A stretch of DNA of 64,000 bases from contig NZ_JANRMI010000003.1 of assembly GCF_029531655.1 (NCBI RefSeq), positions 310,001-374,000 of the forward strand. The letters run 5' to 3'. Source of the stretch: Bdellovibrio svalbardensis. GTDB taxonomy: Bacteria; Bdellovibrionota; Bdellovibrionia; Bdellovibrionales; Bdellovibrionaceae. Each line of letters begins with the position of its first letter. Position 1 is the stretch's first letter. Positions 20,631 to 25,154 of the stretch are shown one piece after another. Under the pieces are notes generated by a model. It saw only the letters and a list, made by a program, of their open reading frames with translations, was not told the DNA's origin and did no database searches. Made by a program: the position numbers and the translations under genes.

Positions 20631-21620
20631 TTACAGTTTCGTGAGGCGATCCAAAATTAAATATGAAGACAACGAGCCAATAGCATAGACTGAGATTTCA
20701 TAAGACATTTTTGACCATTTTAGACTCAACTGTCTTAAAACAAGCAAACCACAGAGTACCGCCGCAACGAATACCAACTGCCCCAACTCAATCCCCACAT
20801 TAAAAGTCATCAGAGCCAGCGGAATTTCATGAGATGGCAAACCCACCTCCGCCAAGGCCCCCGCAAAGCCCAGACCGTGAAGAAGTCCAAAAATCGCAGC
20901 AATAAGCGGAGGATTTCGAGCCGCCAATGACGACGGCGGACCTGTCTCGACCCGAACAAGCTCCACCGCCACGACTAGAATACTTAAAGCAATCAGAACC
21001 TCTACGGGTGCCTGAGGTGTGTGAACAAATCCCAAGGCCGCCAACGACAGCGTAATACTGTGCCCCATCGTGAAGGCTGTGATGGTCCAAAGAAGAGTGC
21101 GTCGACTGCGCACCAAAAGCACAAGTCCCAGCACAAACAAAAGATGATCCCAACCCATAAGAATATGCTCTACACCCAAGGCAATATATTCACGAGCAAC
21201 CTGCCCCGGGCCTTGCTCTATCGGCACTCGAAATGAATTTTGATCTTCACGCAAAACCGCACGCGCTGATGTGCCATTTAAAAATTCGATTCTTAGAAGT
21301 ACATCTGTTTTCCAAGTTCGAAGCCCCGTCACTTGAATCACGCCGTCCTTCAAACCATTCACTCCACAATCCAACTGAAAGCGCTGAACCAAAGCGGCAC
21401 TGGAAAACTCCGGCGTCTGCTCAGAATTAACCCGACACGGCTCCGGAAAACGAGGCCTCAATGGCTCCTCGGCGGTTCGGGAGGCAGGGGTTTTCCAAAG
21501 TACAATATACTTGTTGCTCGCCGCTTCCTTCATATCAAGGAGAGCTGGATCCAAGGGATGAGCCCCCACTACACCTGAGATAAGCATCATTATAACAAAC
21601 AGAAACTTACAGACTCGCAT
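20631..21620 (-). CDS. HupE/UreJ family membrane protein
   Basis: 329 residues. A signal peptide (MRVCKFLFVIMMLISGVVGAHP) and an exported domain of about 125 residues precede about seven membrane helices. The HupE/UreJ_2 core is clear: EYIALGVEHILMGWDHLLFV, TAFTMGHSITLSLA, and FGLLHGLGFAGAL followed by FNVGIELGQL, with His residues in or beside helices that suggest metal handling. Classical HupE and UreJ members transport nickel for hydrogenase or urease, but no such enzyme is present here. The start has GAGGAC 6 bases upstream and overlaps the end of the parvulin gene by 14 bases. It is third in the DUF3604-PpiC-HupE operon. Confidence 0.92.
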   Translation of the reverse strand: MRVCKFLFVIMMLISGVVGAHPLDPALLDMKEAASNKYIVLWKTPASRTAEEPLRPRFPEPCRVNSEQTPEFSSAALVQRFQLDCGVNGLKDGVIQVTGLRTWKTDVLLRIEFLNGTSARAVLREDQNSFRVPIEQGPGQVAREYIALGVEHILMGWDHLLFVLGLVLLVRSRRTLLWTITAFTMGHSITLSLAALGFVHTPQAPVEVLIALSILVVAVELVRVETGPPSSLAARNPPLIAAIFGLLHGLGFAGALAEVGLPSHEIPLALMTFNVGIELGQLVFVAAVLCGLLVLRQLSLKWSKMSYEISVYAIGSLSSYLILDRLTKL

Positions 21621-22581
21621 TGTCCGTCCTCTTAAAATTCCAACCGACTTCAGTTAAATAGAGTTTTCGAAGTCGATCCATATTTTCCTCAGTTCGCATC
21701 ACCGCTCGAACTTTGATTAAACTGCGCAAAGCTGCCGGCTTTATATCCTCAAAGGAGGGAGATCGCTTTGAGCTCACCTCCTCCACTCGAACTAAGTGAA
21801 GGCCAAAGGGGGACTCTAAGGGACCGATCCACTGACCAGGATTTCCGGCAAACACCAGTTTGGAAAACTGCTGACCGAAACGTCTTTGCAACAACGATTC
21901 ACTGACTTCCGTCAGACGCAATCCCAAGGGAAAAGGATCAGAAAGAGTTTCAATCAATGCTAGTGAATCTGGCGAAGTTTGAAGCTTCCTTAAAAGACTC
22001 AAAGCCTTCTTATTTGACTGCGAAGCGATAAAGACTTGTGAGAACGTAACTCTAGAAGCGGCTTCATAGGGCTGAGGATTTTGCTCAATAAACTTTTTGA
22101 TGTCATCATCGCTGGGTGCGGGATCGCCATCAGACTGTGCCAGCAAAATCTGCATTTTATGAACAAGATGTCTGCGAATGATGGTATCTTCATCGAGCCT
22201 TAAATCATAGGCCTTCTGTAAAAGCTCCTCCTCTGAGGCGTACTTGGCTCCCTCACCCAGTGCGCGCATCTTACTTATAAGACGAAGCCGCACACTCTCA
22301 TCACCCTTATCCAGCAGCAATCGTCGCGCTTCGCGCACCAGGATTTCTTCATCGACCTTGTCTTGAACAAGAGCCTTCAGTTGTATTTCCGAGGGCTGTT
22401 GTCCCGCTTGTTTTGCATAATCCAAGCGTATTGATTCCACCTGATCAGATGAAATGCGGATCACATCTCGATCTGACTTTTTCAAAAACTGAACGACCGA
22501 GCGGTCCACCGCAAAAATGGCCAGCCCTAAAAAAACAAAATGTACAAGTCGATTACGCGCTACCTTCCTTAATATTTTCAT
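21607..22581 (-). CDS. Membrane-anchored PpiC-type (parvulin) peptidyl-prolyl isomerase
   Basis: 324 residues from the ATG at 22581, which overlaps the DUF3604 stop as ATGA; the frame is open to 22650 but that part is inside the upstream gene. One N-terminal membrane helix (RLVHFVFLGLAIFAVD) anchors the protein in the inner membrane. The middle resembles SurA-type N-domain helices (QVESIRLDYAKQAGQQPSE, VDEEILVREA). The parvulin domain lies at about 190-300, with VTFSQVFIA and the FGLHLVRVEEV end, both typical. The expected role is folding of exported partners, most likely the two neighbours of its own operon. Confidence 0.9.
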   Translation of the reverse strand: MKILRKVARNRLVHFVFLGLAIFAVDRSVVQFLKKSDRDVIRISSDQVESIRLDYAKQAGQQPSEIQLKALVQDKVDEEILVREARRLLLDKGDESVRLRLISKMRALGEGAKYASEEELLQKAYDLRLDEDTIIRRHLVHKMQILLAQSDGDPAPSDDDIKKFIEQNPQPYEAASRVTFSQVFIASQSNKKALSLLRKLQTSPDSLALIETLSDPFPLGLRLTEVSESLLQRRFGQQFSKLVFAGNPGQWIGPLESPFGLHLVRVEEVSSKRSPSFEDIKPAALRSLIKVRAVMRTEENMDRLRKLYLTEVGWNFKRTDNASL

Positions 22582-24887
22582 GGCGCGTACCAAATCGGTG
22601 AAGTCACCGCTCTTTGTTGAACAGTATTGGGAACGATGCCACTGCAACATTGACGATATTCAAAGTCGGTATAACGATTATTTTCTCTCTCTGGGATAGC
22701 TGGTTTCGAACAGTTTATACCACGAGCGTTGCAGTAATACTGGTTCCAACGACAGCTTTCATTTTCTAGGACCCGGGCATAATAGAAGGCGCGCTGTTCG
22801 GAATTAAATTCAGAATCCTCCCAAACAGAACAAAGAGTTTTGTAACCATCGTTCTGGCTCGGTCGACAAGTATTCAGATCGACCACGCCAGAGATCTTCG
22901 GATTGCCCGCAACATCAATTACTTTCTCATGGGTCTGCCCTTCACTATCAACCCAGCCCTTGATGATTTGAATGCGCTGAAGAGGCGTTCCAGGATTATT
23001 CGCCCACCCTGGATCCTTCGAAGCCAACACGGCAAACAATGGGCCTTTTTTCTTTGTTAGATTGGCTTTGCAATCCTCCCCACTTCGTGGAGCCCCTGTA
23101 AGACAGCCTCCCATCGGAACAGCCGTTTGATAACCTTGAGCCGCAAAGTCACCCATCTGACAGATTGTTTTTGGTAAATCAAATCCACCGAAGAAACGCA
23201 CCAGAGGTCGCGTGCCACTGGTCGCATAGGTCTCACGACGTTTGAAGGCTTCAAAAATGGAATCGCGTGAATTCTCTTCAGCCCATGCGACAGTCATCCC
23301 ACCGGGATTGGTTTCCAAACCTAGAAAGTTCGTCTCTGACAGGGCCTCACCTGACACGATAAAACTTTGATCTCCGTGCGCCCCCACTTTCGCATACATA
23401 TAGGATTCACTCGCCCCGGGAGTTCCGTTGTGATTGTCGAGAGCTCCGACAACCCCGAGCTTAAATGGATTGACCCCGTTTTTCTGTTCATAGGCAATTC
23501 CATCTTTCAGGACATTGCGCACATAACTGCTTGGCTGAATATTGATAGCGTTCGGCTCAGAAATGTACTGACTTGCCAAGCGGCCATAGCTCATATTTTC
23601 AAAATCGCAAAGTTCGTCAAAGGTGTTCCAGGCTCCCGGCATGCGCGCAGAGTATCGACACTCGCTTTGCCCTTTGATTTGGAAGAGTTCCACCAAAGGT
23701 TCCATTTCACTGCGCAGTCTTGCCTCTTCTAAATTTTCCGGCATGCCAAACATCGCACCACCACTTAAATTCGGATTGTGGGGAATTGAAAGCACATCGC
23801 AGCCCGGAATCGCAGCGCACTCCAACTTCAACCGACGCAGCATAATCTCCGGAGATCCCAAAGGACCTGGAGTGTTACATGCAGATCCGTTCCCGCATTT
23901 TACCGGAGCTTCAATATTGCTGATAGGACGCTCGAGGACATTGCTATTACGGAAGATAATATTGCGATGCAAATTGTCCCCTCCGCCTGCGGAAAGACAC
24001 ATCTGATTGTCAGAGCAATCAATAGAGGCTCGCGCAACTCCTACACCATCCCAACAAGCCTTGCCGTCATTTTGACATGTGCCTGCAGCAGGCATGGCCG
24101 TGTATTCATAACCGATGAAGCTGGTGAATTTGCATTCGTCTGTTTGATCATAGGCATCTTGCGCGTCGTTGATGATTTGCTGCCAGACATTTTTGGCTTG
24201 GAATAGACAGTTCTCTCCGGCAATTCCGCAGAAGGGAAGACGTGTTGGATTTTGCGCAACAAAGTAAGCTCCCGCAAAGATCGTCGCCCCAAGACCTCCT
24301 CTTAACTTCGCCACTTCTTCCCTGACAAGAACACAGCTGGGACTTTGGTATCCTTTCGGAACACAACGACCTTGATAGCACTGCTGCCCTTGTGCGGTGC
24401 AGGCGCTGGAATCACTGCAGGGAACTTTTTCTTCCCACAAGCAGATGTTGGTCTCCCCTAGTTGCTCGGAGTGATCCGTGATCGCCGCAAAATCCAAACC
24501 GCGACCATCAGGAAGTTGAATCGTGCGAGTTGCCATAAACTGACAACGCTCCCCTGGTAAACAGTAAGGATGCGAAGAGACCGGCCCCACGGGAGTGTTC
24601 GTAGGAGGCACCTCACCGATCAAGGTGTTTATAAAGGGTGGCAGGCCAACCTTCTCCCCTTTTGCAAAACGATAGGCATCTGCCGGCGTGTTACGGGTAT
24701 CCAAGGTCGCAGCATCCACCGAGTACTGCGTATGAAGATGAAGTTCGCCAAAGAAGGGCTGACGGACGCGCGAGTAGTTGCTGCAGCGAGGACGTTTCTC
24801 GGTAATTTTAAAGGGGACTTCTGAAGCTCCCAAGGATGTCGTTGAGACGCCTAAAACCAGCAATCCAATGCACGCAAATAAACGCAT
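22578..24887 (-). CDS. Exported DUF3604 protein with PHP-like metal motif
   Basis: 769 residues from the ATG at 24887, chosen because AGGAGG sits 7 bases before it (an in-frame ATG at 24893 lies within that site). A signal peptide runs to about residue 22. The core opens with PFFGELHLHTQYSVDA, the H-x-H-T-x-x-S-x-D pattern of PHP-type metallohydrolases, and continues with DFAAITDHSEQLG, SIPHNPNLS and GALDNHNGTPG, which supply more His/Asp/Asn metal-ligand candidates. Several Cys-rich loops (EEKVPCSDSSACTAQGQQC) suggest disulfides in the periplasm. The family is large and poorly characterised; a phosphoester or related substrate is a guess. First gene of a three-gene overlapping operon. Confidence 0.92.
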   Translation of the reverse strand: MRLFACIGLLVLGVSTTSLGASEVPFKITEKRPRCSNYSRVRQPFFGELHLHTQYSVDAATLDTRNTPADAYRFAKGEKVGLPPFINTLIGEVPPTNTPVGPVSSHPYCLPGERCQFMATRTIQLPDGRGLDFAAITDHSEQLGETNICLWEEKVPCSDSSACTAQGQQCYQGRCVPKGYQSPSCVLVREEVAKLRGGLGATIFAGAYFVAQNPTRLPFCGIAGENCLFQAKNVWQQIINDAQDAYDQTDECKFTSFIGYEYTAMPAAGTCQNDGKACWDGVGVARASIDCSDNQMCLSAGGGDNLHRNIIFRNSNVLERPISNIEAPVKCGNGSACNTPGPLGSPEIMLRRLKLECAAIPGCDVLSIPHNPNLSGGAMFGMPENLEEARLRSEMEPLVELFQIKGQSECRYSARMPGAWNTFDELCDFENMSYGRLASQYISEPNAINIQPSSYVRNVLKDGIAYEQKNGVNPFKLGVVGALDNHNGTPGASESYMYAKVGAHGDQSFIVSGEALSETNFLGLETNPGGMTVAWAEENSRDSIFEAFKRRETYATSGTRPLVRFFGGFDLPKTICQMGDFAAQGYQTAVPMGGCLTGAPRSGEDCKANLTKKKGPLFAVLASKDPGWANNPGTPLQRIQIIKGWVDSEGQTHEKVIDVAGNPKISGVVDLNTCRPSQNDGYKTLCSVWEDSEFNSEQRAFYYARVLENESCRWNQYYCNARGINCSKPAIPERENNRYTDFEYRQCCSGIVPNTVQQRAVTSPIWYAP

Positions 24888-25154
24888 GGCCATTCCTCCT
24901 GAAATTGAATCTCAAAGGAAAGGATGGCGGCGGCATTCTTTGATAGACAGATAAACTTTTAGCCTCTGTCGAAAACCACATTCGCAATATTTGATCTCTG
25001 TCGAGTTTAGGGTCCGAGCAGGATTCTGTTTTTGAATAACATGACCGAAAACAAGGTAACTTTTTACAAGGGAGAACAAAACTGTGGGCTTTTAGGGTGG
25101 TCTTTTCTATATTTCAACAAAGCAAATCCCAACAAAAACCCTAGGAGTCCTTCA

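What the first reader, a model, noticed from the sequence alone, without database searches (positions are those of the whole stretch)
20631..24887. Overlapping operon DUF3604 - parvulin - HupE/UreJ without hydrogenase or urease
The genes overlap by 4 and 14 bases. The first has PHP-like metal motifs, the second is a membrane-anchored folding factor and the third resembles nickel permeases with His-rich helices. I recall the same trio in other proteobacteria, so it may be a metal-loaded exported hydrolase with its own metal supplier and folding factor.
Basis: partly seen in the sequence, partly recalled or inferred. Interest (0 to 1): 0.6.

Follow-up and report, generated by a model that had tools for sequence, protein, structure and literature searches.

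The report
Recurrent metal-linked hydrolase–foldase–permease operon
Three overlapping genes in this bacterium encode an exported metal-dependent hydrolase of unknown job, a folding helper and a probable metal permease; the same set recurs, often on plasmids, across distant bacteria, so it is very likely a real working unit whose purpose has not been tested.

Summary
In detail: DUF3604 (22578-24887), parvulin (21607-22581) and HupE_UreJ_2 (20631-21620), all on the minus strand, overlap by 4 and 14 bases. The genome has no NiFe-hydrogenase or urease. In three samples this HupE subtype was found in 74 of 777 genomes; 72 of these also carry DUF3604, one only as a broken remnant. DUF3604 folds like a PHP metallo-phosphoesterase (Z 16.9), with all candidate ligands conserved. 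The permease carries an exported domain with a ZrgA/PA4063-like fold and, in the window, a mature N-terminal histidine, like the copper/nickel-binding 'anglerase' HupE proteins (PMC12537917). Two corrections: the parvulin follows the permease more faithfully than the hydrolase (46 of 50 against 28 of 50), and HupE permeases are thought to import metal, which does not obviously supply an exported enzyme. I prefer a hydrolase working together with a metal-capturing permease. Substrate, metal and direction are untested.

The parts
22578..24887 (-). DUF3604 protein: signal peptide, PHP-like metallohydrolase fold, C-terminal FnIII-like beta domain; candidate metal ligands H52 H54 D140 H141 E263 H309 H372 E402 D486 H488 (numbering from the ATG at 24893)
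   Evidence: Pfam 445.5 bits; AlphaFold pTM 0.88; PHP structure 3e38 Z 16.9; ligands in 132-134 of 134 sequences
21607..22581 (-). membrane-anchored SurA/PrsA-type parvulin (PPIC-type prolyl isomerase)
   Evidence: Rotamase_2 53.6 bits; profile matches SurA, PrsA, HP_0175 structures; hydrophobic N-terminal segment (sequence)
20631..21620 (-). HupE_UreJ_2 permease: signal peptide ending AH, about 110-residue exported beta domain, six transmembrane helices
   Evidence: PF13795 157.6 bits; AlphaFold pLDDT 90; beta domain like ZrgA/PA4063 Z 10.4
22578..22581 (-). 4-base stop/start overlap between DUF3604 and parvulin
21607..21620 (-). 14-base overlap between parvulin and HupE
24895..24900 (-). AGGAGG ribosome-binding site 7 bases before the DUF3604 start at 24887

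Best explanation
The three genes form a conserved, horizontally moving cell-envelope unit. SHOWN: co-location and co-occurrence; PHP fold and intact ligand set of DUF3604; parvulin family; permease with an exported ZrgA-like domain, a mature N-terminal His (in the window) and invariant His/Asp/Glu in its helices. INFERRED: DUF3604 is exported to the periplasm and hydrolyses an ester-type substrate there; the action frees or presents a transition metal (Cu, Ni, Co or Zn); the permease's N-terminal domain captures the metal and feeds it to the six-helix permease, which carries it inward; the parvulin folds the exported parts of the permease, and perhaps the hydrolase. The permease-parvulin pair is the accessory half: it almost never occurs in a genome without DUF3604, while DUF3604 often occurs without it.
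For: Genome-level nesting. Pseudomonadota: 17 of 17 genomes with this HupE subtype have DUF3604, against 1 of the other 282. Myxococcota: 53 of 55 against 18 of 133. Bdellovibrionota: 2 of 2, against 0 of the other 288 with a strong match. Physical linkage: 19 of 20 HupE genes within 2 kb of DUF3604; 43 of 44 plasmid records listed in both searches within 3 kb. Parvulin beside the permease in 46 of 50, and beside none of 13 other-subtype HupE genes. Gene orders vary (DUF-PPI-HUP, PPI-HUP-DUF, divergent or convergent), and association is scattered over the DUF3604 tree with at least 25 changes. Folds. Closest studied relatives bind Cu and Ni through His1 and are proposed uptake devices (PMC12537917, section 8 read). 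In Rhizobium sp. N324 the trio is followed by two short genes annotated HupE/UreJ, one tested as PF04955 at 181.5 bits.
Against: No metal-regulator box is enriched upstream of 43 trio loci, and there is no riboswitch near the window operon. The mature N-terminal His is Asp in 11 of 105 subtype members, all beside a parvulin, so the His brace is not essential to the unit. One divergent locus has a TM-less exported domain in the permease's place (L017), which fits hand-over to the enzyme as well as uptake. Permease-parvulin pairs without DUF3604 nearby are common (17 of 50). In Myxococcota only 12 of 30 subtype loci fetched show a parvulin and 10 of 30 a DUF3604 in the 1.5 kb flank. No substrate, metal or transport was measured.
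Confidence: 0.4

Rival explanations
1. One reading: the permease (or its exported domain) supplies metal to the exported DUF3604 and the parvulin folds DUF3604.
For: Nesting of the pair within DUF3604 genomes; PHP metal site; a soluble TM-less His1 domain replaces the permease in L017; DUF3604-parvulin without adjacent HupE at L045, L050, L077.
Against: HupE-type permeases are regarded as importers (PMC2667541, PMC12537917); DUF3604 with identical ligands often lacks the pair (36 of 67); parvulin follows the permease better than the hydrolase.
Confidence: 0.25
2. The permease carries the hydrolysis product or another non-metal solute; the conserved His/Asp/Glu serve protons or structure.
For: No metal regulator signal upstream; some members lack the N-terminal His; DUF3604 lies beside sulfatases in a few Halieaceae-type loci.
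Against: ZrgA-like fold of the exported domain; known relatives bind Cu/Ni (PMC12537917); helix residues invariant in 106 of 106.
Confidence: 0.15
3. Permease and parvulin form a membrane device for export, folding or quality control of DUF3604, not chiefly for metal.
For: Translational overlap, nesting and single-locus linkage; parvulin relatives are SurA and PrsA.
Against: Solitary DUF3604 genes are common, and pairs stand far from any DUF3604.
Confidence: 0.12
4. No functional coupling: three genes travel together as plasmid or island cargo.
For: Plasmid and patchy distribution.
Against: Linkage persists with several gene orders and across three phyla; the pair is nearly absent from genomes without DUF3604.
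Confidence: 0.08

Closest known systems
Anglerase Ang-1-HupE/UreJ-2 (RbAng-1a, PDB 9GCE, PMC12537917)
   Same: Signal peptide, mature N-terminal His, beta-sandwich domain whose nearest solved fold is ZrgA (8F1B), then HupE_UreJ_2 membrane domain
   Different: The window domain is shorter (about 110 residues), has no three helices between strands 2 and 3, is not found by a profile made here from the N-domains of other HupE_UreJ_2 proteins, sits with parvulin and DUF3604 (not named in section 8, read in full), and 11 of 105 relatives have Asp in place of His
HupE/UreJ nickel permeases (PF04955; Rhizobium HupE)
   Same: Six helices, HX5DH motif (H152...D158H159; motif recalled), GHS, HG, E residues
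   Different: Extra exported domain; PF13795 subtype; no hydrogenase or urease in the genome
PHP metallo-phosphoesterases (BVU_3505, PDB 3e38)
   Same: Fold (Z 16.9, 231 residues, rmsd 3.5) and HxH...DH...E...H...H...DxH ligand pattern
   Different: No sequence match to any PHP solved structure; large insertions and a C-terminal FnIII-like domain
SurA/PrsA periplasmic parvulins
   Same: N-terminal anchor or signal, chaperone-like region, one parvulin domain
   Different: Gene bound to a HupE permease; client unknown
ZrgA / PA4063 periplasmic zinc proteins
   Same: Fold of the permease's exported domain (Z 10.4-9.3)
   Different: No His-rich loops; 8-16% identity

Membership tests
DUF3604 (PF12228) | Profile score over the curated cut-off | tested here: met
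   445.5 bits against 20.4
PHP superfamily | PHP fold | tested here: met
   3e38 Z 16.9 over 231 residues, next row Z 8.1; Foldseek E 1e-4
PHP superfamily | Conserved His/Asp/Glu metal-ligand set (motif pattern recalled) | tested here: met
   H52, H54, D140, H141, E263, H309, H372, D486, H488 in 132-134 of 134
PHP superfamily | Bound metals and phosphoesterase activity | not testable with these tools
   needs purified protein
CehA/McbA metallohydrolases (NF038032) | NCBIfam cut-off | tested here: not met
   11.2 bits against 80
HupE_UreJ_2 (PF13795) | Profile cut-off and HX5DH motif (motif recalled) | tested here: met
   157.6 bits; H152, D158, H159 in 106 of 106 subtype members
HupE_UreJ_2 (PF13795) | Nickel or cobalt transport | not testable with these tools
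   needs transport assay
Anglerase Ang-1 | Mature N-terminal His after the signal peptide | tested here: met
   A20-H21 in the window; cleavage inferred from the sequence; His in 94 and Asp in 11 of 105 with a residue there
Anglerase Ang-1 | ZrgA-like beta-sandwich domain | tested here: met
   8f1b Z 10.4, rmsd 2.4, 100 aligned
Anglerase Ang-1 | Three helices between strands 2 and 3 (PMC12537917) | tested here: not met
   No helix between E26-34, E37-45 and E55-57 in the model
Anglerase Ang-1 | Sequence kinship of the N-domain | tested here: inconclusive
   No hit with a profile of other HupE_UreJ_2 N-domains; Ang-1 sequence itself not at hand
Anglerase Ang-1 | Cu/Ni binding | not testable with these tools
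   needs purified domain
Parvulin PPIase | PPIC-type domain over cut-off | tested here: met
   PF13145 53.6 against 27; PF00639 22.5 against 21.7
Parvulin PPIase | Isomerase activity | not testable with these tools
   needs purified protein

The most novel reading that the evidence does not exclude
A previously undescribed class of mobile metal-foraging unit: an exported PHP hydrolase releases transition metal from an organic complex in the envelope, and a dedicated anglerase-like HupE permease with its own foldase takes it up; rhizobia carry it on conjugative plasmids.
Probability: 0.25. Interest if true: 0.75.

Novelty: new variant of a known kind. Interest (0 to 1): 0.5.

Why it matters
It gives DUF3604, a widespread family for which I found no tested function in print, a fold class, a complete ligand set and two fixed partners, and gives one subtype of HupE permeases a physiological context that is not hydrogenase or urease. 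Because the unit is compact and found on plasmids of genetically tractable Sinorhizobium and Rhizobium, single deletions plus metal assays can decide between metal uptake and enzyme metallation.

Tried and rejected
Rejected: chance neighbours. Rejected: the pair exists to metallate every DUF3604 (solitary DUF3604 with identical ligands). Tried: does another exported metalloenzyme replace DUF3604 in pairs without it? In G733 the neighbour is a metallo-beta-lactamase-fold protein without a signal peptide in the plausible frame, in G263 a lipoprotein-like beta-propeller, in G707 a doubtful ORF: no pattern. Other neighbours of lone pairs (nitroreductase, enoyl-CoA hydratase, flotillin and others) gave no shared theme. 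Tried: metal-regulator boxes (no enrichment) and riboswitches (none). Tried: base composition for recent transfer (trio GC3 0.45-0.48 against 0.47 +/- 0.04 for 35 ORFs over 250 aa in the window, some of which may be spurious); uninformative. Foldseek gave no significant PDB match for the whole permease; the membrane half matched TOC-TIC chain 7vcf_A at Z 9.9, which for helices may mean nothing. Sulfatase neighbours of DUF3604: only 4 of 80 loci. An early iterated profile search was contaminated by shadow ORFs and replaced; the DUF profile was kept. The first tree script failed when saving its result and was rerun; the first residue count failed on an index and was rerun. Papers: PMC12537917 passages and section 8 read in full; PMC8561739, PMC9973294, PMC4771312, PMC2667541, PMC11925237 passages only; others search listings. 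DUF3604 occurs in one paper of the library, in a transposon-mutant table; PF12228 and PF13795 in none; 'HupE' with 'peptidylprolyl isomerase' gave 11 papers, of which the 10 listed are unrelated by title. Preprints and most subscription journals were not searched.
Full report
WHAT IS THERE. The window lies in a 3.9 Mb genome (G000; contig C3, 310001-374000; 99.94% complete). Three minus-strand genes overlap: DUF3604 22578-24887, parvulin 21607-22581, HupE_UreJ_2 20631-21620. The DUF3604 protein begins with a signal peptide, the parvulin with a hydrophobic anchor, and the HupE protein with a signal peptide ending ...VGA|HPL (sequence; cleavage inferred). The genome holds no NiFe-hydrogenase or urease, so the classical reason for a HupE is absent.

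RARE IN ITS OWN LINEAGE. A DUF3604 search of 290 genomes of the phylum gave 6 with any match: two strong (G000 and G263) and four weak. Of the genus members shown there, only G000 has the gene; G061 has a weak stretch with three stops (not followed up). The HupE subtype likewise appears in G000 alone within the genus. G263, in another family, has several DUF3604 genes: one full trio (L016, with the DUF3604 frame split in two), one DUF3604-parvulin-small exported protein (L017), one solitary DUF3604 (L015) and one parvulin-HupE pair apart (L284). This patchiness fits horizontal transfer or many losses. Composition does not help.

RECURRENCE. The genome-contig scan gave 80 loci (the best 80 of 459 relatives, so biased to close ones); 18 of 80 hold parvulin and HupE near DUF3604, and 23 of 80 hold the parvulin (several contigs end early). 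Plasmids: 78 records match DUF3604 and 78 match this HupE; of 60 listed rows each, 44 records are in both lists and in 43 the two lie within 3 kb. The records are mostly Rhizobium and Sinorhizobium, and 27 of 78 are typed conjugative. Annotated examples. Counter-examples: two tandem DUF3604 genes with no partner and parvulin-HupE without annotated DUF3604 nearby. One record had no annotation.

LESS BIASED TEST. Evenly drawn genomes were searched with PF12228 and with a profile of the HupE subtype (A7; 26 rows, 6 of them from pairs with no adjacent DUF3604). Pseudomonadota (299): the HupE subtype at 290 bits or more gives 20 genes in 17 genomes, the next score being 214; all 17 have DUF3604 (in G498 only a remnant with a stop), against 1 of the other 282 when the weak matches in G367, G466 and G579 are left out. 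Of the 20 genes, 19 lie within 2 kb of DUF3604; the exception (G598) is 42 kb away. All 17 HupE loci fetched have the parvulin beside them; 13 loci of other HupE_UreJ_2 genes (160-208 bits) have none. Myxococcota (188): HupE at E 1e-60 or better in 55; 53 of these have a strong DUF3604 (E 1e-100 or better), against 18 of 133 others; 30 genomes with weak DUF3604 matches were counted as lacking it; the two exceptions are G707 and G733. Bdellovibrionota (290): HupE subtype in G000 and G263 only, both with DUF3604. Together 72 of 74. Fisher tests give p near 1e-26 and 1e-28, but genomes are not independent, and the centres of the two outside samples (G294, G298) were themselves reached through DUF3604 loci. 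Physical linkage is looser in Myxococcota: 12 of 30 fetched HupE loci show a parvulin and 10 of 30 a DUF3604 in the 1.5 kb flank.

WHO GOES WITH WHOM. So the stable core is parvulin plus permease, and DUF3604 is the partner it almost always needs in the genome but not always next door. On a FastTree of 134 DUF3604 proteins the presence of a partner changes at least 25 times (12 rows with unknown state left out), and partners are found on both sides of the deepest split; the link is old or re-made often. Several gene orders occur.

WHAT THE PROTEINS ARE. DUF3604: the AlphaFold model (pLDDT 80, pTM 0.88) matches the PHP-like phosphoesterase BVU_3505 (3e38) at Z 16.9 over 231 residues; the next row, Z 8.1, matches only the C-terminal beta domain. 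By sequence alone no solved PHP relative is found. H52, H54, D60, D134, D140, H141, E263, H309, H372, E402, D486 and H488 are conserved in 132-134 of 134, with or without partners. HupE: the model (pLDDT 90) has a beta domain at 26-131 and six membrane helices. The beta domain's best matches are the zinc proteins ZrgA and PA4063 (Z 10.4-9.3; unrelated rows for this domain start at 7.1). Helix residues H152, D158, H159, H187, E207, H248, E278 and Q281 are invariant in 106 of 106. The residue after the signal peptide is His in 94 and Asp in 11 of 105 with a residue there. Parvulin: profile hits to SurA, PrsA and HP_0175.

COMPARISON WITH WHAT IS KNOWN. PMC12537917 (Nat Commun 2025; section 8 read) describes Ang-1 and Ang-2 'anglerases': His1 domains fused to HupE/UreJ-2 that bind Cu2+ (Kd 74 and 62 nM) and, for Ang-1, Ni2+ (220 nM), with ZrgA as the nearest fold of Ang-1, proposed to fish for metals and feed the permease. 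The window HupE works like these in outline, but its domain is shorter, lacks the helices reported for Ang-1, is not found with a profile of other HupE_UreJ_2 N-domains, and belongs to a subtype tied to parvulin and DUF3604. The neighbourhoods listed in that section name DUF4198, indigoidine-A-like proteins and PfkB, not DUF3604 or a parvulin. I therefore call it an anglerase-like variant, not a proven Ang-1.

MECHANISM. The import direction of HupE-type permeases makes a simple 'metal supplier for an exported enzyme' awkward. A hydrolase that frees metal (or a metal-bound ligand) in the envelope, with a capturing permease and its own foldase, fits the nesting: a metal-catching permease of this subtype is useful only where DUF3604 works. 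The alternative, hand-over of metal from the exported domain to DUF3604, is kept at 0.25 and gains from L017, where the third gene is a TM-less exported protein beginning His after its likely signal peptide and weakly matching anglerase-type N-domains (21 bits as a single target; phmmer E 0.003). Neither is demonstrated. No metal-responsive operator was found in 43 upstream regions.

VERDICT. Components belong to known families; the union was not found in the papers searched.

Noticed in passing
L017:1677-2210 (G263): Third gene after DUF3604 and parvulin is a 177-aa exported protein without membrane helices, starting His after its likely signal peptide and weakly matching anglerase-type domains.
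   Followed up: partly
L304:10226-11436 (Rhizobium sp. N324 plasmid): The trio is followed by two short overlapping genes annotated HupE/UreJ; the first is PF04955 at 181.5 bits, a five-gene version.
   Followed up: partly
L145, L149, L216, L217, L221-L225, L277, L295: Eleven subtype HupE proteins have Asp instead of His at the mature N-terminus, all beside a parvulin.
   Followed up: partly
L146, L147, L148: Subtype HupE genes without parvulin stand beside a Na/Ca exchanger (L146, L148) and/or a glyoxalase-fold gene (L147, L148).
   Followed up: no
L046:7972-9774, L069:8173-9951, L072:4032-5777: A conserved sulfatase gene adjoins DUF3604 in Halieaceae-type genomes; in L046 and L069 it lies between two DUF3604 genes of different subfamilies.
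   Followed up: partly
L216 (G498:C12:454141-456335): Parvulin and HupE intact beside a decayed DUF3604 remnant with a stop.
   Followed up: no
window 24964-24972 and 24996-25004: Two direct copies of CTCTGTCGA 32 bases apart upstream of the operon.
   Followed up: no
L028: Record titled Klebsiella pneumoniae MAG carries a trio close to deltaproteobacterial ones; probably a mislabelled bin.
   Followed up: no
L295:1-8918 (Rhodobacteraceae M382 plasmid): A parvulin-HupE pair lies near a GTP-binding protein, DUF1826 and an ABC system annotated partly as nickel transporter, a metal-flavoured neighbourhood.
   Followed up: no
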